Of a stretch of 64,000 nt of DNA, positions 12,704-21,899 are shown in pieces. The stretch is from Thioalkalivibrio sp. ALE31 (GTDB lineage Bacteria > Pseudomonadota > Gammaproteobacteria > Ectothiorhodospirales > Ectothiorhodospiraceae), in contig NZ_KB905026.1 of assembly GCF_000377405.1 (NCBI RefSeq), positions 1-64,000 of the forward strand, read 5' to 3'. A program made the translations under genes and the position numbers. Below the pieces are notes generated by a model. That model searched no databases. It saw nothing but the letters and a program-made list of their open reading frames with translations, and was not told the origin of the DNA. Numbering within the stretch: the stretch's first letter is position 1; every line of letters begins with the position of its first letter.

Positions 12704-13180
12704 TCAATGCAGGGATGGACATTTCCGGAACGCTACGTGGAGAACCTGCCCCTTGGCAATGTCACGGGTTTTTTTCGTCGGCTGCGTCGCTCCGGGGCCC
12801 TGAGCACAGGTCATTCGTCGAGAGCGGCTGCGAGCGGTGGCGGGCTCGCAAGACGCGCCTCCCGGATGGGGATTGCGGGTGGGGTGGTCGTCGCTGTCCG
12901 CAGGCCGTTTCATGGACGCGGACATGTCTGGCCGCGGCTCCGGTGGTCTGCGCTGGACGGTGATACCTTCGAGGCAGGCCTCCAGGATGAGCTCGCGGAT
13001 CGTTTCGTGGGCCTGGTCGCGGGCCTGCGGTCCGCAGCAATCCGCGGGGGCGATGATCCCCGTCTCCAGCAGATCGCGGAGTTCCTGGCCGCGCCACTCG
13101 GCCACGATCCGGCGCGACGGCTCGTCGATGATCCGGAGCGAGGGGTCGGGGTTTTCCAGCCATGCGTCGAGCGTGAACAT
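12704..13180 (-). CDS. small protein of unknown function behind a Fur box
   Basis: A 158-aa protein. The first 80 residues look folded (MFTLDAWLENPDPSLRIID, EWRGQELRDLLETG, ETIRELILEACLEG). The rest is Arg/Pro/Ser-rich, compositionally odd, and may be disordered or a read-through into non-coding frame. The ATG at 13180 is fixed by a perfect AGGAGG five bases upstream. A Fur-type operator lies at 13195-13213, so iron-repressed expression is likely. I do not recognise the family. It is followed after 4 bases by the WYL regulator. Confidence 0.6.
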   Translation of the reverse strand: MFTLDAWLENPDPSLRIIDEPSRRIVAEWRGQELRDLLETGIIAPADCCGPQARDQAHETIRELILEACLEGITVQRRPPEPRPDMSASMKRPADSDDHPTRNPHPGGASCEPATARSRSRRMTCAQGPGATQPTKKTRDIAKGQVLHVAFRKCPSLH

Positions 13181-13194
13181 TGTGCCTCCTAAGA

Positions 13195-13243
13195 AATGAG
13201 AACCATTCGCATTCATAGTCGTCGAGGGAGAGGCGCGAGTCAA
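13195..13243 (-). promoter_or_regulatory. promoter with Fur box for the orphan gene
   Basis: AATGAGAACCATTCGCATT (13195-13213) is an imperfect palindrome matching the proteobacterial Fur box; 7 of 9 positions are symmetric. On the minus strand a -35 TTGACT (13243-13238) and a -10-like GACTAT (13220-13215) are 17 bases apart. The box lies just downstream of the -10 over the expected start site, the usual place for repression. Confidence 0.65.
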
Positions 13244-14063: not shown

Positions 14064-15322
14064 GCGGTTACGTCCGGGCGGGACTCTCGGGTTTCCGGGG
14101 CATCCACCTCGGGCTCGGCGGTCTCGGACCCCAGGCGCCAGACCGGGAAGGGATCCGCGTAGCTCAGCCAGCGTTCCGGGCCTTCCAGCATCTCGTCGTC
14201 GGTGAGCAGGCAGGCGTCGAGACGTTTGCGCATCGCATCCGCGTCCATGTGGATGCCGATCAGTACAATCTCCTGACGTCGGTCCCCGAATCGGTCATCC
14301 CAGACCGGCGCGATTGCCGTCTCCCACCAGTCTTCGTGGGTGGGGCGCTGCTCCGGGGATACGGCAGCCCACCAGAACCCGGCAGCGTGGTGGGTCAGCG
14401 CCCCGCCGGCCTGAGACAATGTGCCGGCCCAGTCGGGGCGCGAAGCCAGCCAGAACCAGCCCTTGCTGCGGATGATGCCAGGCCATTCCTCGTGCAGCAG
14501 GGCAAAAAAGCGTTCCGGATGAAATGGCCGATTGACGCGGTATACGATGCTGGAGATGCCGTATTCCTCGGTCTCCGGGGTGTGGCCACCCATCATCTCC
14601 TGGGCCCAGCCGGCGGCCTGGGACGCGCGGTCGAAGTCGAAGCGTCCGGTGCCCAGCAGGGACTCCGGCGCGATCTGGCCGTGTGTGGTTTCGATGATTC
14701 TGGCGTCCCGGTTAAGGGCGCGCACGACGCTGCGGACGGTATCCAGTTGTTCCGGCGACGGGCGATCCACCTTGTTCAGGACAATGACGTCCGCGAACTC
14801 GATCTGATCCACCAGCAGGTCAACGACGGTACGGTCGTCTTCCTCCCCCAGGGATTCGCCGCGGTCGCCCAGGAAATCGCTGGACGCGTAGTCCTGCAGC
14901 AGGGCACCTGCATCCACCACCGTGACCATCGTGTCGAGGCGGGCGACATCGTCCAGGGACTGGCCGTCTTCGTCGCGGAAGGCGAAGGTGGCCGCGACCG
15001 GCATGGGTTCGGAAATGCCGGTGGATTCGATGACCAGGTAGTCGTACTGCCCGGATTCGGCGAGGCGGCGCACCTCCACCAGCAGGTCGTCCCGCAGCGT
15101 GCAGCAGATGCAGCCGTTGGTCATCTCGACCATGCGGGCATCGGTACGTGTTACGGCATCCTGGCCGCCGCGCACCAGGGCGCTGTCGATGTTGACCTCG
15201 CTCATGTCGTTGACGATGACCGCGACGCGCAGCCCCGACTGGTTGTGCAGGATGTTGTTCAGCAGTGTGGTCTTGCCGGCGCCGAGAAAGCCGGAGAGGA
15301 CGGTGACGGGCAGGCGTTTCAT
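14060..15322 (-). CDS. COG0523 (CobW/ZigA-type) GTPase, putative zinc chaperone
   Basis: A G3E GTPase of 420 aa thought to deliver metal to client proteins during zinc limitation. It has Walker A GFLGAGKT (11-18), the metal-binding CICC (71-74, within NGCICCTLRDDL) and NKVD (183-186). The C-terminal CobW-C domain (FHPERFFALLHEEWPGIIRSKG) is complete. The length of about 400 aa and the long C-terminus fit the ZigA/YciC branch, which is Zur-regulated in other bacteria. It follows the dksA2-like gene by 65 bases and shares the ATGA overlap with DUF1826. Confidence 0.9.
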   Translation of the reverse strand: MKRLPVTVLSGFLGAGKTTLLNNILHNQSGLRVAVIVNDMSEVNIDSALVRGGQDAVTRTDARMVEMTNGCICCTLRDDLLVEVRRLAESGQYDYLVIESTGISEPMPVAATFAFRDEDGQSLDDVARLDTMVTVVDAGALLQDYASSDFLGDRGESLGEEDDRTVVDLLVDQIEFADVIVLNKVDRPSPEQLDTVRSVVRALNRDARIIETTHGQIAPESLLGTGRFDFDRASQAAGWAQEMMGGHTPETEEYGISSIVYRVNRPFHPERFFALLHEEWPGIIRSKGWFWLASRPDWAGTLSQAGGALTHHAAGFWWAAVSPEQRPTHEDWWETAIAPVWDDRFGDRRQEIVLIGIHMDADAMRKRLDACLLTDDEMLEGPERWLSYADPFPVWRLGSETAEPEVDAPETRESRPDVTA

Positions 15323-15387
15323 GGTACCTCCAGGGAATCGGGATGCCCGGGCGTCGGAATGTGCCCGGATGGAAGGGTTGGGCAGGC

Positions 15388-15789
15388 TCAGCGCACGAAC
15401 ACGTGTTCGGCCTTTTCCTGGCGTTCCTTGACCTCGATGCAGAGGGTCGCCGTCGGGCGGGCCAGCAGGCGGGGCAGACCGATCGGTTCGCCGCTCACCT
15501 CGCAGTAGCCGTAATCGCCGGTTTCGATGCGATGCAGGGCCGCATCGATCTTTCGCAGCAGGCGGCCTTCGCGCTCCTGCACCCGCATCGACAGGAGGCG
15601 CGACTCCTCCATTGCCGCGCGGTCAAGCTCGTCCGGGGTGCGTTCGTTGTCGCGCAATCCGTCCCGGGCACCCTCCATGTCGGCCAGGATCTCGTCGCGC
15701 ATTTCGAGCAGGCGCTCGCGGAAGTACGCGAGCTGGGCCTCGTTCATGTAGGCCGCGGCAGGCATGGCCAGCAGTTCGTCGCGGGTCAT
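15388..15789 (-). CDS. dksA2: DksA-like RNA polymerase regulator with two zinc cysteines lost
   Basis: A 133-aa DksA/TraR-family protein that would bind the RNA polymerase secondary channel and work with ppGpp. The coiled-coil tip keeps the DxxDxA motif (Asp53, Asp56, Ala58). The zinc finger is degenerate: Cys96-x-x-Ser99 and Cys117-x-x-Val120 replace two CxxC pairs. This matches the pattern of DksA2 paralogues that work without zinc. A Zur box lies 24 bases upstream of the start. It heads the leftward dksA2-COG0523-DUF1826 operon. A start at MPAAAYMNEAQ (residue 9) is possible. Confidence 0.88.
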   Translation of the reverse strand: MTRDELLAMPAAAYMNEAQLAYFRERLLEMRDEILADMEGARDGLRDNERTPDELDRAAMEESRLLSMRVQEREGRLLRKIDAALHRIETGDYGYCEVSGEPIGLPRLLARPTATLCIEVKERQEKAEHVFVR

Positions 15790-15812
15790 GGGGTTCCGTC
15801 GGTTGCGATCAG

Positions 15813-15833
15813 GATGTTATACCATAACGTTTC
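15813..15833. promoter_or_regulatory. Zur box between dksA2-like and folE2
   Basis: GATGTTATACCATAACGTTTC contains the perfect palindrome GTTAT-ACC-ATAAC (15816-15828). It agrees closely with the enterobacterial Zur consensus ATGTTATAnTATAACAT. It sits between divergent genes starting at 15789 and 15905, so one Zur dimer pair could repress both. Confidence 0.85.
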
Positions 15834-15904
15834 GATTGCGCCCCGACAACACGGATCGGCCACCGTCCTGTGATGGGGTCGACCCGCCTGCAAAAAGGTG
15901 TCTT

Positions 15905-16849
15905 ATGTCCTCTACCTGTGTGTCTCCGGCCTCGCCGGATACGGAAACCTCCGCGACCGATCCGCTACCGGATATTGCCGCGTCGGCTGCTACGCACGCC
16001 TCCGCGCTCGACTGGGTGGGTATGGAAGACATCACCCTTCCGCTGTATCTGACCGGCCAGCCAGTGATCGCCCGGGCAAGCGCGGGGGTGAGCCTCGACG
16101 ACGCGGGCGCGCGCGGTATCCATATGTCACGGCTCTACGGGGCCCTGCGACAGCTGGAGTCCCGCGAGCTGGACGTTGCGCGGCTGTGGGGCGTGCTCGA
16201 AGCGTTTCTGGCTTCGCACGATGGCCTGTCCAGCGTGGCCGAGGTCCGTCTGGCCGGGGAGCTGCCGCTGGAACGGCCGGCCCTGGTCAGTGCCGCCGCG
16301 GGCTGGAAGCGCTACCCGTTCCGGATCGCTGCGCGCAGCGAGTCCGGGGCGGTGTCTCTGGAGCTGGAGGTTCAGGTGGGCTATTCCTCCACCTGTCCGT
16401 GCTCCGCCGCCCTGGCGCGGCAGGCGATCCAGGAGCAGTTCGACCGTGACTTCACGCGAGCGGCCGTGGATGCGGCAACCGTGCGCGAATGGCTGGGCCG
16501 GGCCGAGGGGATCGTCGCGACGCCCCACAGCCAGCGCAGCGAGGCAACCGTCACGGTCGGTCTGGAACCGCTGGTCTCAACGCTGCCCCTGCCCGATCTG
16601 ATTGATCGCGTGGAACAGGCGCTGGGCACCGCCCTGCAAACGGCGGTAAAGCGCGTGGACGAGAAGGCCTTCGCGCTCGCCAACGGCCGCAACCTGATGT
16701 TCTGCGAAGACGCCGTACGGCGCCTGGACAGCGCCCTGCGCCCGGAGTACTACGCCCGCGGCTATCGCATCCAGGTTCGCCACCGCGAGAGCCTGCATGC
16801 ACACGACGCCGTGGCGCGGGTCGTGCGTCTGCCGTCAGCGGAACGCTGA
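15905..16849 (+). CDS. folE2: GTP cyclohydrolase IB (FolE2)
   Basis: Converts GTP to 7,8-dihydroneopterin triphosphate for folate synthesis. It replaces zinc-dependent FolE when zinc is short, because it can use other metals. The 314-aa protein has GIHMSRLY (71-78) and GYSSTCPCSAALAR with Cys164 and Cys166, plus the late His-rich RHRESLHAHDA. I chose ATG 15905, preceded by AAAAAGGTG, over the long upstream extension that crosses the Zur box. A Ser/Thr/Ala-rich N-terminus precedes the catalytic region. Zur control from the box at 15813-15833 is expected. Confidence 0.92.
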   Translation: MSSTCVSPASPDTETSATDPLPDIAASAATHASALDWVGMEDITLPLYLTGQPVIARASAGVSLDDAGARGIHMSRLYGALRQLESRELDVARLWGVLEAFLASHDGLSSVAEVRLAGELPLERPALVSAAAGWKRYPFRIAARSESGAVSLELEVQVGYSSTCPCSAALARQAIQEQFDRDFTRAAVDAATVREWLGRAEGIVATPHSQRSEATVTVGLEPLVSTLPLPDLIDRVEQALGTALQTAVKRVDEKAFALANGRNLMFCEDAVRRLDSALRPEYYARGYRIQVRHRESLHAHDAVARVVRLPSAER

Positions 16850-16937
16850 AGCAGCCAGTCGGAGCGTGGACCGCCACAAGGCGGTGGGGTTGGTCAGGCA
16901 TCTGCCAGGTCGCTCTTCGGCAAGCGTGTGGACACGT

Positions 16938-16968
16938 AAAAAAGCCGCCGGAAACGCAATCCGGCGGC
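16938..16968 (-). terminator. intrinsic terminator of the small RNA
   Basis: A perfect 9-bp stem GCCGCCGGA / TCCGGCGGC (16968-16960 and 16952-16944) with a 7-base loop is followed on the minus strand by six T (16943-16938). The T-run is only on the minus side, so it does not serve folE2. It could also end read-through from the znu operon. Confidence 0.85.
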
Positions 16969-17052
16969 AATGCTTACGGAGGATGGAGAGACCAAAGGCA
17001 GGAAGTCACCTTTCGTCCTGGCGACACACAGCTGTCCGGGCTGCGCATCGAA
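16938..17052 (-). ncRNA. candidate Fur-repressed small RNA
   Basis: No gene covers this stretch between convergent folE2 and the methyltransferase gene. On the minus strand a sigma70 promoter overlapped by a Fur box precedes about 115 bases that end in a strong intrinsic terminator. There is no credible ORF with a ribosome site in it. A pyrimidine-rich, probably unpaired stretch (CTCTCCATCCTCCG, 16990-16977) is an anti-Shine-Dalgarno sequence. The organisation matches RyhB/PrrF-type iron-sparing RNAs. I saw no sequence similarity to those, so the assignment rests on architecture alone. Confidence 0.6.
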
Positions 17053-17086
17053 ATGAGAATCATACGCACTTGCGGTGCATTGTCAA
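17051..17086 (-). promoter_or_regulatory. sigma70 promoter overlapped by a Fur box
   Basis: On the minus strand TTGACA (17086-17081) and TATGAT (17064-17059) are separated by 16 bases. The plus-strand sequence AATGAGAATCATACGCACT (17052-17070) overlaps the -10 and resembles a Fur box: the left half is canonical and 6 of 9 positions are symmetric. Confidence 0.7.
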
Positions 17087-17134
17087 GCGGACTGAGGCCT
17101 GCTCGGGCCCAGGGGGGCGATGGCGTAGCCCGTG

Positions 17135-18013
17135 CTACGGCCCGGACGGCACTGACTGAGAGGTGCCTGCCGCGTCGGGCAGGCTGCGATGCCGGTCGGC
17201 CATCGGCTCGGCCGTGATCAGGTAATCCGCCCCGTGCCGCAGGCCCTCCTTGCTTCGGGCCAGCGGCAGGGCGGTTTCCCGCAGCGCCTCGATCTTCTGG
17301 TGCATGGCCTTTGCCAGGCCATCGTCATTGAAGTGCGACAGCTGGCGCAGGCACAGGTCGAGCTGGCCGTTGACGAAGCGCTCGCGGTAGTGAATCGGGA
17401 AATAGCGGACATCCAGAACCCGGAAGCCGGCGATTCCGAGATGGCGCATGACCCAGGACGAAGGGTATTCGCGATAGGGGCGGTTCCCCGCGAGCAGCAG
17501 GCAGGCATCCCGCAGGCGACCGATTTCGCGCACGATGCGGTCAGACTCGGTCTTGGGTTCGGTCAGTACATAGGGTTCCACGCCGACGAGATACAGCCGC
17601 TCGCCCACATGAGGCCGTAGTCGATGCAGCGCGCGGTCCTGCCAGTAGGGCGAGAAGCCCTCGATTGCTCCGATGAAGTAGTCGAGCAGGACGGTGTCGA
17701 AGCGCTCGCCGAACAGCAGCTGGTCCGACATCCAGTTGCCGACGAGGATGCGATCTTCGCGTCGTCGGTCTTTTCCTGCCGCCTTCTTCACCGTGTTCGC
17801 CATCTCCTGCGAGGCCGTGACGGCGGTCCAGCGCTCGGTCTCCAGCGCACAGATCCACTCGATGGATGCGCGTCCGGTTCCGGCATCGAGCACACTTCCC
17901 CAGGGTCGGTCGCCCTGCAGCTTCTCGATCGCCTGGAAGATCGGCGAGTGGGTGCCCTGGCGCTTCGGCCCGCCGGATGGGGTTGCACCATGGGGGGTTG
18001 GCTTCGGGGGCAT
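17135..18013 (-). CDS. SAM-dependent methyltransferase in the znu operon
   Basis: A 292-aa class I methyltransferase-like protein. SAM motif I is VLDAGTGRASIEW, near residue 36, followed by TAVTASQEMANTVKKA and a post-motif acidic strand FDTVLLDYFIGAIEGF. It resembles the spermidine-synthase-like fold, but I cannot assign a substrate. The C-terminal half (RYFPIHYRERFVNGQLDLCL, FNDDGLAKAMHQKIE) is unfamiliar. ATG 18013 is preceded by GGAG and lies 31 bases after the znuB stop, so it appears to be the last gene of the Zur-controlled operon. Confidence 0.75.
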   Translation of the reverse strand: MPPKPTPHGATPSGGPKRQGTHSPIFQAIEKLQGDRPWGSVLDAGTGRASIEWICALETERWTAVTASQEMANTVKKAAGKDRRREDRILVGNWMSDQLLFGERFDTVLLDYFIGAIEGFSPYWQDRALHRLRPHVGERLYLVGVEPYVLTEPKTESDRIVREIGRLRDACLLLAGNRPYREYPSSWVMRHLGIAGFRVLDVRYFPIHYRERFVNGQLDLCLRQLSHFNDDGLAKAMHQKIEALRETALPLARSKEGLRHGADYLITAEPMADRHRSLPDAAGTSQSVPSGP

Positions 18014-18044
18014 GATTCTGCTCCGCGGTGACTTCTCGATCGGT

Positions 18045-18818
18045 TCAGGGACGTGACATTGCGAGCAGTCGGGCCGCCAGGGCGAGGCCGACATTGACCA
18101 GGACGAGTACTGGCGCAAACGGCTGATCCAGCGGCAGGCTGACGCTCCAGGCGATCAGGAAGCCCGCGAGGGCCAGGGCCTGGGCCCACAGGAATAATCC
18201 GCGCAGATTGCGTGCGAGATAGGCGGCGCCCCAGGCGGGCAGGAGCAGCGTGGCGAGGGCAGCGGGCAGGCCCAGCACCATGCTGCCCAGCACCACTGCG
18301 GCCACCAACCAGGCGATCTCCGTGAGGCGCAGCCACGTGCGCGGGCTGCGCGTGCCGGGGACGTCGGGGGCGAGCTGTGCGTGTCGCCAGACGTGGTACA
18401 GCCCGGGCGCGAACACGAGGCTGGCCAACCCGAGCGCGACCACTGCCCATAGTTCGCGCGGTCCGGCGAAGTACAGCTGGCCCTCGGCCCAGGCGGCCGC
18501 GGCGAGGCTGGCCTGCGCGAAATTGGCGGCCAGCAATGTCACTGCCGCCAGTCCGGCCAGAAAAACGGCCAGCGGCAGGCGCTCGCGGTCAGAGCTGCGT
18601 TGCAGCAGGGCCATGACTCCGGCCCCGAGTGCCAGGGCTACAGGCAGCACCGGCCAGTGGACGACCGACGCCAGGACGCCCCCGACGGCGGCCCACTGTC
18701 CGAGTGCCAGCGCCTGCCAGACCGACCCGCGCAGGAACAGGCCGGCCCCGGCCAGGGCCAGCACGCCCGTGATCAGCAGCCCGGAGACAAACGGTTCGAA
18801 CAACAGGTCACCGAGCAT
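18045..18818 (-). CDS. znuB: zinc ABC transporter permease ZnuB
   Basis: Inner-membrane permease of the ABC-3 metal transporter family, 257 aa, with about seven to eight hydrophobic helices. The N-terminus LLFEPFVSGLLITGVLALAG and the central TEIAWLVAAVVLGSMVLGLP fit the family. It pairs with ZnuC, whose gene it overlaps by 11 bases. It is somewhat short and Ala/Leu-rich. Metal choice (Zn) is inferred from the Zur-controlled surroundings. Confidence 0.88.
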   Translation of the reverse strand: MLGDLLFEPFVSGLLITGVLALAGAGLFLRGSVWQALALGQWAAVGGVLASVVHWPVLPVALALGAGVMALLQRSSDRERLPLAVFLAGLAAVTLLAANFAQASLAAAAWAEGQLYFAGPRELWAVVALGLASLVFAPGLYHVWRHAQLAPDVPGTRSPRTWLRLTEIAWLVAAVVLGSMVLGLPAALATLLLPAWGAAYLARNLRGLFLWAQALALAGFLIAWSVSLPLDQPFAPVLVLVNVGLALAARLLAMSRP

Positions 18819-19407
18819 CGAGGTAGTCCGTCAATGGATGGTTCTCGACCCCGACGGCCTGCAGGAACTCGTCGTCGTGGCTGGTCATCACCAGTGTCGT
18901 AGCAGCCGGGAGGGAGGTAATCAGGTCGACCGCATCGCCGCGCACCTCGGCGTCGAGGTGGTTGGCGGGCTCGTCCAGAAGGACCAGGCGTTCCCCCGGT
19001 GGCCGGTGGGCGCTGCTGTGCAGGGCCGCGGCCAGGCGCAGCAACTGCCACTGGCCGCCACTCAGGCGGTCGAGGCGACGATCCAGCAAGGCCTGCACCC
19101 GGGGTTGATCGGGCGGGGTGGCGCCCATCGCCCTGAACCAGTCGTGACCGCACAAGGGCCAGGGGTCCCGCCGGGGGTGGTCCTGCGCCAGCAGGCTGAC
19201 ACGCGTCGCGGGGCCAAGCCGCAGGGTGCCTGAGTGGACCCGAGCCTGGCCGGTTACGGCCTTCAGCAGCAGCGACTTGCCGATGCCATTGGGGCCGGTC
19301 AGGGCCCATCGGGTCCCCGTGGGTACGTCGAGGGACAGCGGGCCCAGCACCGGACGATCAAAGCCGAGGTGCGCGGCCTCTGCGTGCAGCGCGGTTTGAG
19401 GGGGCAT
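18808..19407 (-). CDS. znuC: zinc ABC transporter ATPase ZnuC
   Basis: The 199-aa nucleotide-binding subunit that powers zinc import. Walker A GPNGIGKS, Q-loop LLAQDHPRRD, signature LSGGQWQLLRL, Walker B VLLDEPANHLD and the H-loop TSHDDEF are all present. It is shorter than typical ZnuC (about 250 aa) and lacks the usual C-terminal His-rich tail. It is separated from znuA by 91 bases containing a perfect hairpin, and overlaps znuB. Confidence 0.9.
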   Translation of the reverse strand: MPPQTALHAEAAHLGFDRPVLGPLSLDVPTGTRWALTGPNGIGKSLLLKAVTGQARVHSGTLRLGPATRVSLLAQDHPRRDPWPLCGHDWFRAMGATPPDQPRVQALLDRRLDRLSGGQWQLLRLAAALHSSAHRPPGERLVLLDEPANHLDAEVRGDAVDLITSLPAATTLVMTSHDDEFLQAVGVENHPLTDYLDAR

Positions 19408-20532: not shown

Positions 20533-21834
20533 TCAGAAGCGATGGGCGCCGTGGGCGCCGAGGGCCACGTTCAGCTGCAGCATGAACTCCAGCCCGCGGT
20601 CGCGGTGGCCGTCGTCATCGATGAAGTCATTCTGCGACAGCTGGGCGCGCAGGAACACCGGCTCCACCGGGCGGAAAGTGACCTGGGCGGAGTGGCGATA
20701 GGAGGTACCGAAGGAGTCGCCGTCGCCGCGGCCGACGTCGTTGGTCAGGCCAAGGGCCTCGGCGCGAAGACCGGCCTCCCAGCGCGGGGCAAAGCCGTAG
20801 ACGCCCTGGACGTAGATACCGTCCTGCTTGTTCTTGAAGCTTTGCTCGTTGCGCACGAAACCCACGGGGCCATTGCCGTCTGCCTCGAAGTTCACGTCAC
20901 GGCGGTCGACGTCGATTTCGCGGTAGAAGTACTCGCCCTGCAGCCGCCAGTCGCCATGGCCGTAGGCGCGCCCGGCGCTGTACTTGTAGACGGCATCCAG
21001 GCCGGCGAACCAGGCGCTGCCGTCCCAGTCCTCGAAGCGGGTGGAGTGCTCGTCCGTCACCTGATAGCTGCGGGCGTAGCCACCGGAGACGCCGAACTGC
21101 GCGGCGTGGTCAGGGCCAAGATCCGGGCCGAACTTGGCGAAGGCGGTGACCAGGCGCGGGCCGGAGCGGTCCCGAAGAATGCGTTCCTGACCGTTGAGCG
21201 CCGACTGACTACCCTCGTAGTTGGCGATTCCGCTGGTTTCGCCCTGCAGCAGTTCCACCCCGAGTTGGGTGTAGGCCTCGGTCGGTGCGACCCAGGTGGC
21301 CTGGACGCCGGTTTCCTGGAGGCCGTGGTCGCCGAAGATGTACTCGTTTACCAGCGGACGGTCGACGAAGTCCCAGTCGTGGCCGTGGCGGCTGTTGATG
21401 TACCCGATATCGGACAGGAACTTACCGGCCTTGATCTGGAAGCCGCCGGGCAGGGCGCGGGTAGTCAGGTAGGCCTCTTCGACTTCGATGTCGCTGTCGT
21501 CGAAGCCGAGCATCAGCACGCCGTCGAACAGGTCGCCCAGGTTGGCCTGGAAGACCAGCTCGCTGTGGCCCAGGTTGAATCCGTCGTCGAAGCCATGATC
21601 GTGTCCGTGGTCGTGACCATGGCCGTGGTCGTGGCCATCGTCGAAGCCGGCGGGTTCGTCGATCCCGTGCGAGAGTTCGTTGTAGTAGACGCCTTCCAGG
21701 ATCAGCGAAACGTCCAGACCCCAGGAACGGTCTTCGGACTGGGCGCTCCATTGCGCGGCAGCGGCCCCGGGGGCGGCGAGGGCCAGGGCGGTGAGTCCGG
21801 CAAGGACGGGGCGGGCGTATGGGGCGCGGGACAT
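20533..21834 (-). CDS. His-rich outer-membrane protein of the zinc operon
   Basis: A 433-aa exported protein with a signal peptide (residues 1-27) and a pattern of short amphipathic strands, ending in HRF (a terminal aromatic as in beta-barrels). It is probably an outer-membrane barrel. Residues 65-90 hold a histidine-rich loop of repeated DHGH units, a likely metal-gathering surface. It lacks an obvious TonB box. First in the operon, it has AAGGAG before the ATG and two Zur boxes 66-105 bases upstream. It probably admits zinc at the outer membrane; homologues beside znuABC exist, but the mechanism is not established. Confidence 0.75.
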   Translation of the reverse strand: MSRAPYARPVLAGLTALALAAPGAAAAQWSAQSEDRSWGLDVSLILEGVYYNELSHGIDEPAGFDDGHDHGHGHDHGHDHGFDDGFNLGHSELVFQANLGDLFDGVLMLGFDDSDIEVEEAYLTTRALPGGFQIKAGKFLSDIGYINSRHGHDWDFVDRPLVNEYIFGDHGLQETGVQATWVAPTEAYTQLGVELLQGETSGIANYEGSQSALNGQERILRDRSGPRLVTAFAKFGPDLGPDHAAQFGVSGGYARSYQVTDEHSTRFEDWDGSAWFAGLDAVYKYSAGRAYGHGDWRLQGEYFYREIDVDRRDVNFEADGNGPVGFVRNEQSFKNKQDGIYVQGVYGFAPRWEAGLRAEALGLTNDVGRGDGDSFGTSYRHSAQVTFRPVEPVFLRAQLSQNDFIDDDGHRDRGLEFMLQLNVALGAHGAHRF

Positions 21835-21899
21835 GTCGAGCTCCTTGTTGCACGGCAGACTGCAGCCAGGATCAGTGGGTCCGCCGATGAAGGTGAGTT

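What the first reader, a model, noticed from the sequence alone, without database searches (positions are those of the whole stretch)
16938..17086. Candidate Fur-repressed small RNA between folE2 and the znu operon
On the minus strand a TTGACA / 16 bp / TATGAT promoter is overlapped by a Fur-like box (AATGAGAATCATACGCACT). About 115 bases without a credible ORF follow, ending in a perfect 9-bp GC stem plus six T. An unpaired-looking CTCTCCATCCTCCG could pair with Shine-Dalgarno regions. This is the architecture of RyhB/PrrF-type iron-sparing RNAs, placed inside a zinc-response island. I recognise no sequence homology to known RNAs, so it may be a new family.
Basis: partly seen in the sequence, partly recalled or inferred. 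Interest (0 to 1): 0.85.

Follow-up and report, generated by a model that had tools for sequence, protein, structure and literature searches.

The report
Iron-switched small RNA in Thioalkalivibrio
A soda-lake sulfur bacterium and some of its relatives carry a small RNA gene, absent from the Rfam library, whose conserved shape, promoter and terminator suggest that it is switched on when iron is scarce, much like RyhB in E. coli, though no transcript has been seen here.

Summary
On the minus strand a strong promoter (TTGACA-16-TATGAT) overlaps a Fur-like box; about 115 non-coding bases follow, closed by a 9-bp terminator stem with six T (16968-16938). It is conserved: 14 copies in 12 of 47 held genomes of the order, all in one genus, Thioalkalivibrio (12 of 30; two genomes hold two copies). 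Transcript and helices are kept while the flank past the terminator is not; 10 of 30 base pairs changed on both sides. No reading frame is kept, and Rfam has no match above cut-off. The box is more Fur-like than Zur-like and also stands before a PA4570-like gene, whose P. aeruginosa namesake is listed with a Fur box; two copies score at background. Best reading: a Fur-repressed, iron-sparing RNA whose C-rich stretch pairs with Shine-Dalgarno regions; a new sequence family of a known functional kind. The best target lead is msrB, a proven RyhB target: 9 nt of exact pairing at its ribosome-binding site in 5 of 8 genomes read, 8 in one, 6 in two. The window's own copy has a unique change there that shortens it. 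Every copy lies in or near zinc-island or metE genes. No transcript or binding data exist here.

The parts
17081..17086 (-). -35 hexamer TTGACA
   Evidence: TTGAC kept in 13 of 14 copies
17059..17064 (-). -10 hexamer TATGAT, 16 nt from the -35
17051..17070 (.). Fur-like box (AATGAGAATCATACGCACT on +) overlapping the -10 and the likely start site
   Evidence: a similar box lies at 13194-13210
16938..17055 (-). small RNA, about 112-117 nt depending on the true start
   Evidence: covariance model and matches; start inferred from the promoter
17022..17050 (-). helix 1 hairpin
16989..17018 (-). helix 2 hairpin
16977..16990 (-). conserved presumed seed CUCUCCAUCCUCCG (CUCUCCAACCUCCG in most relatives); the window copy has a unique change at 16983
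16938..16968 (-). intrinsic terminator: 9-bp stem and six T
13194..13210 (.). second box of similar type, upstream of the PA4570-like gene
12704..13180 (-). gene whose N-terminal part resembles the PA4570 family, below that model's cut-off
   Evidence: NF050178, 55.7 bits, cut-off 100
15814..15830 (.). Zur-type box between dksA2 and folE2 (contrast, not part of the RNA gene)

Best explanation
It is a free-standing small RNA gene with its own sigma-70-type promoter. Iron-loaded Fur sits on the box across the -10 and start site and blocks it; when iron is short the promoter opens and an RNA of about 115 nt is made. Two hairpins and a terminator flank an exposed C-rich stretch (CUCUCCAACCUCCG) that pairs with Shine-Dalgarno regions of selected mRNAs and stops their translation, sparing iron. 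Shown here: gene anatomy, conservation, structure by covariation, lack of a kept frame. Inferred: transcription itself, Fur as the regulator, base pairing as the mode, help from Hfq (not tested), msrB as one target.
For: 14 copies in 12 of 47 genomes. Transcript 88-92% identical between the window and G018, G019, G023, G024, while the stretch past the terminator is 36-42%, the level of shuffled sequence. Covariation: 97.1% of cells paired and 10 of 30 pairs changed on both sides, reached by 0 of 500 shuffles (the alignment was fitted to the model, so it leans that way); 6 of 30 on the unfitted alignment of 12. Box: 6 of 11 sites of GCGNATGATTNTCATTT (up to 2 mismatches) in 4 genomes lie at the RNA (3) or before the PA4570-like gene (3), reversed-pattern control 0. 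PA4570 is listed with a Fur box (PMC5145850, table passage). In ALJT (G025) the RNA neighbours a heme receptor. msrB pairing (SelR domain 178.6 bits) with the RyhB precedent (PMC3650055, abstract and passages).
Against: No transcript, Fur binding or iron response was seen. Fur consensus scores are modest: against shuffles of the same stretch only 9 of 14 copies are under 0.05. The PA4570-like box of the window scores about equally on the Fur (0.009) and Zur (0.011) consensus. A classical Fur box (GATAATGAGAATCATTATC, up to 3 mismatches) was found in 0 of 4 genomes; of 22 TonB receptor loci one, the ALJT heme receptor, reached 14 of 19 and two reached 12 in the 250 nt before a roughly guessed start. 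18 of 30 genomes of the genus gave no copy, 6 of them under 90% complete. Seed-complement sites are not enriched: 80 against 161 for the reversed pattern in 4 genomes. The window's own seed change cuts msrB pairing to 6 bp plus 2; msrB of G023 and G024 pairs over 6.
Confidence: 0.7

Rival explanations
1. A real small RNA, but controlled by Zur (zinc) or by the third Fur-family protein rather than by Fur, acting for example in zinc sparing.
For: All 14 copies lie in or near the zur/znu/folE2/dksA2/cobW island or metE; each of 4 genomes searched has three Fur-family proteins; the PA4570-like box scores 12 of 22 on the Zur consensus.
Against: Two Zur-type boxes in the island match the recalled Zur consensus at 17 and 15 of 22 positions; the 14 RNA promoters match at 9-11, near background. 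The similar box stands before a PA4570-like gene.
Confidence: 0.15
2. A leader or riboswitch-like element of a neighbouring gene.
For: Structured, terminator-ended RNA; the genus has published leader candidates such as mgtE and aceE-II (PMC11109978, passages).
Against: The gene that follows differs between genomes and folE2 is convergent in the window; a strong terminator closes the RNA.
Confidence: 0.05
3. A small protein gene of about 24-29 codons.
For: Open frames exist in the window copy.
Against: The -10 frame is closed by TAG in 12 of 14 copies, no ATG start is common to the 12 copies, indels shift frames, and changes follow helix pairing.
Confidence: 0.03

Closest known systems
RyhB (Enterobacteria)
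   Same: Short RNA with a Fur-type box at its promoter and a terminator; possible shared target msrB (PMC3650055, abstract and passages)
   Different: Not among the Rfam matches at E up to 5; different seed and neighbourhood
PrrF1/PrrF2 (Pseudomonas)
   Same: Fur box; two copies in some genomes; one paper table lists Fur boxes for both prrF1 and PA4570 (PMC5145850, passage)
   Different: Not among the Rfam matches; the two copies in ALJ7 are 3.7 kb apart, not in close tandem as recalled for PrrF
FsrA / IsrR (Firmicutes)
   Same: C-rich single-stranded stretch aimed at Shine-Dalgarno sequences; IsrR was found in all screened Staphylococcus genomes, a genus-wide RNA (PMC9410917, passages)
   Different: Different hosts; described there as using different chaperones and as unrelated to RyhB and PrrF; no direct sequence comparison was run here
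Thioalkalivibrio structured RNAs of Narunsky et al. 2024 (PMC11109978)
   Same: Same genus, intergenic RNA candidates
   Different: Term search of the main text: folE 0, metE 0, znu 0; outline and passages seen, supplement not readable, so overlap is not excluded

Membership tests
Fur-repressed iron-sparing sRNA (functional class) | own promoter overlapped by a Fur box | tested here: met
   Fur-like by sequence only, at background in 2 of 14 copies
Fur-repressed iron-sparing sRNA (functional class) | induced by iron limitation through Fur | not testable with these tools
   needs RNA and Fur-binding data
Fur-repressed iron-sparing sRNA (functional class) | pairs with mRNAs of iron-using proteins | tested here: inconclusive
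   msrB 9 nt in 5 of 8 genomes read; 0 of 585 sampled start regions reach 9 nt, but that sample missed three of the four msrB genes it should have held
RyhB / PrrF / NrrF by descent | match to the Rfam family | tested here: not met
   E up to 5: gntR-DTE, SorX, Hrs13, Xoo8 only, all far below cut-off; Hrs13 and Xoo8 overlap the RNA at E about 0.3; 0 in the window
Zur-controlled RNA | Zur box at the promoter | tested here: not met
   9-11 of 22 in 14 copies against 17 and 15 in two island boxes
Hfq-type sRNA with intrinsic terminator | terminator stem and U run; Hfq binding | tested here: inconclusive
   terminator present; Hfq presence and binding not tested

The most novel reading that the evidence does not exclude
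An independently arisen iron-response RNA has settled inside the zinc-response island and ties iron to zinc and methionine repair: under iron shortage it represses msrB, as RyhB does in E. coli, while its neighbours (folE2, dksA2, znu) answer to zinc. Unrelated RNAs would then have converged on the same enzyme.
Probability: 0.25. Interest if true: 0.75.

Novelty: new member of a known kind. Interest (0 to 1): 0.52.

Why it matters
Iron-sparing RNAs are known mostly from pathogens and model species (general knowledge). Here is a candidate in a chemolithoautotroph of soda lakes, where iron is poorly soluble and sulfur oxidation leans on heme proteins (both recalled). It offers a defined, conserved gene to test, and a chance to ask whether unrelated iron RNAs converge on the same targets, such as msrB.

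Tried and rejected
Fur box near fur: AGAAATGAGAATCTTGATC-type sites beside fur in four genomes proved to be the start of a divergent lipoprotein-like reading frame (MIKILISIA..., read by eye in the sequence; bamE by recall) and were dropped as evidence.

Matches outside the genus: 5 of 370 genomes of the class (E 3e-5 to 5e-4) show a terminator but, by eye, no such promoter or box. The ninth record of the genome-collection scan, L075, has no covariance match. A first pattern search of the 47 family genomes failed through my own wrong spacer length (0 of 47).

Targets: the 14-mer seed complement with 2 mismatches gave 80 sites in 4 genomes, 5 of them the RNA gene itself; no recurring start region stood out in the filtered print. 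For GGAGGTTG followed by ATG in six genomes, 77 rows against 40 for the reversed pattern (Shine-Dalgarno sites alone would raise it), 57 of 77 rows were read (and earlier loci). Duplex energy did not single out msrB: the one msrB in that set, G025, ranked 27 of 585. Longest exact pairing to the seed reached 8 in 4 of 585 (one is G025 msrB) and the reversed seed reached 8 in 6 and 9 in 1 of 585. That sample is crude: msrB of G000, G024 and G023 lay in its stretches but their starts were not called, so '0 of 585 with 9' is not a clean negative. Island genes pair over 4-6 nt.

Papers: searches (0 papers; 0 papers) listed no report of this RNA as far as titles and abstract starts show; only the papers named were opened, as passages or outline.

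Full report
Observation. The promoter is the only sigma-70-like site at the tool's threshold in 15000-19000 (11 of 12 matches; 0.2 in shuffles), and the terminator has 9 pairs. The RNA folds at -48.5 kcal/mol, below 200 of 200 shuffles. Rfam gives nothing at cut-off over the window. At E up to 5 in 16500-17600 there are four matches far below their cut-offs; two, Hrs13 (E 0.29) and Xoo8 (E 0.31), overlap the RNA and I take them as chance.

Conservation. A DNA search of the 47 held genomes of the family, which are also all that is held of the order, found 12 copies in 10 genomes at E below 1e-20. A covariance model of these 12 added one copy each in G012 (E 4e-11) and G021 (E 1e-7): 14 copies in 12 of 47 genomes, 12 of the 30 of one genus. 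The weaker matches that I printed are terminator-type stretches or the second RNA told below. A scan of the genome collection with an exact promoter-box-seed pattern gave 9 records: 8 named Thioalkalivibrio (ALJ3, ALJT, ALJ24, ALJ21, ALE14, ALJ7, T. halophilus HL17, one MAG) and one uncultured bacterium that fails the covariance model. In 370 genomes of the class three genus members matched strongly; five others match at E 3e-5 to 5e-4 by the terminator.

Selection and structure. Between the window and G018, G019, G023 and G024 the transcript is 88-92% identical and the stretch past the terminator 36-42% (shuffled mean 39%, maximum 47%). The upstream stretch is 35-59% (shuffled mean 37%, maximum 43%), so it still aligns in part in three of the four; the 37-nt promoter stretch is 62-68%, for which no shuffled control was run. 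G032 has 74% in the transcript; G017 is nearly identical throughout and says nothing. On 14 copies (13 distinct) 97.1% of cells pair and 10 of 30 pairs have changes on both sides, 0 of 500 shuffles reaching either; the count of further pair types is reached by 16 of 500; sliding the partners drops pairing to 35-48%. That alignment was fitted to the model and so is generous; the unfitted alignment of 12 gave 6 of 30 such pairs. The frame from the -10 ATG is closed by TAG after four codons in 12 of 14 copies, and no ATG start is shared by the 12 copies translated. The conserved unpaired stretch is CUCUCCAACCUCCG; the window differs by one base, G020 by one and G021 by two, one of them a missing base.

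Regulator. The box region overlaps the -10 in every copy. Best matches to the recalled Fur consensus are 10-14 of 19; against background stretches of the window p is at most 0.009 in 10 copies, 0.036 in 2 and 0.114 in 2, and against shuffles of the same stretch p is under 0.05 in 9 of 14. Matches to the recalled Zur consensus are 9-11 of 22, p 0.048-0.42, whereas two of the island's Zur-type boxes reach 17 and 15. The window's PA4570-like box scores 12 of 19 for Fur and 12 of 22 for Zur, so it does not separate the two by itself. GCGNATGATTNTCATTT with up to 2 mismatches in four genomes gave 11 sites, 0 in the reversed control: 3 at the RNA, 3 before the PA4570-like gene, 5 not tied to a gene start. 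In the own genome the only two sites are these two. PA4570 of P. aeruginosa is listed with a Fur box and falls 22.1-fold under a treatment that the paper's title links to higher iron availability (PMC5145850, passage); another paper suggests joint control by Fur and PrrF (PMC8534726, passage). The assignment here is below the model's cut-off (55.7 against 100 bits). Against Fur: the classical consensus had no match within 3 mismatches in 4 genomes, and of 22 TonB receptor loci only the heme receptor beside the RNA in ALJT reached 14 of 19, two others 12. Each of four genomes has three Fur-family proteins.

Neighbourhood. In the window, G017, G016, G023, G019 and G024 (copy a) the RNA lies between folE2 and a weakly methyltransferase-like gene followed by znu genes; in G032 between folE2 and a znuB-like gene; in G018 (copy a) between folE2 and metE; in G020, G024 (copy b) and G025 beside metE, in G025 also beside a heme receptor; in G018 (copy b) directly upstream of the PA4570-like gene; in G012 and G021 within 2 kb of zur. 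Family searches back folE2, dksA, cobW and DUF1826, znuA, an ABC-3 permease, an ABC ATPase, metE and a LysR regulator, tested in one genome each; the orthologues elsewhere are by likeness. Zur is the best match of its protein but under that model's cut-off (127 and 137 against 167 bits).

Targets. Seed-complement sites are not enriched (80 against 161 reversed). GGAGGTTG followed by ATG in six genomes gave 77 rows (40 reversed). Of the 57 rows read, one gene recurred as a start region: msrB, in G016, G017, G018 and G020; its product in G000 is a SelR-domain protein (178.6 bits). Reading msrB also in G000, G025, G024 and G023 gives 9 nt of exact pairing in 5 of 8, 8 in G025 and 6 in G023 and G024. 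Of 585 sampled start regions none reaches 9 nt, but a reversed seed does once, and the sample missed three msrB starts in its own stretches. Since msrB was picked by this very pattern, the evidence is moderate. No compensating change was seen: G000's msrB is unchanged although its RNA differs, which leaves 6 bp plus 2 there. The independent precedent is that RyhB represses E. coli msrB, an iron-binding enzyme, at its short 5' leader (PMC3650055, abstract and passages).

Conclusion. A real small RNA gene: very likely. Fur control: likely. Iron sparing by pairing to ribosome-binding sites: plausible. msrB as a target: a good lead. By kind it is known; by sequence it is a new family limited to one genus, as far as Rfam 15 and the searches named here can tell.

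Noticed in passing
L059:1501-1608 (own genome C1:654346-654453 +); also L060, L068, L053: A second terminator-ended RNA stretch, downstream of a gene with only a weak sulfur-oxygenase-reductase match, shows CUCUCCA in a predicted hairpin loop, the same motif as this RNA's seed. It could be a 3'-end-derived RNA with related targets.
   Followed up: partly
window 16983: The window's RNA has a base change inside the seed (CCAUCC for CCAACC) seen in none of the other 13 copies, weakening pairing to msrB; its sister genome G017 lacks it.
   Followed up: partly
L032:2453-2571 and L032:6135-6252: Two copies of the RNA 3.7 kb apart in ALJ7, one just upstream of the PA4570-like gene with its own box; G024 has two copies on different contigs.
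   Followed up: partly
window 20533-21834: Histidine-rich predicted outer-membrane protein upstream of znuA with no confident family (BBP2 porin match under its cut-off) behind Zur-type boxes at 21898 and 21925; candidate zinc porin.
   Followed up: no
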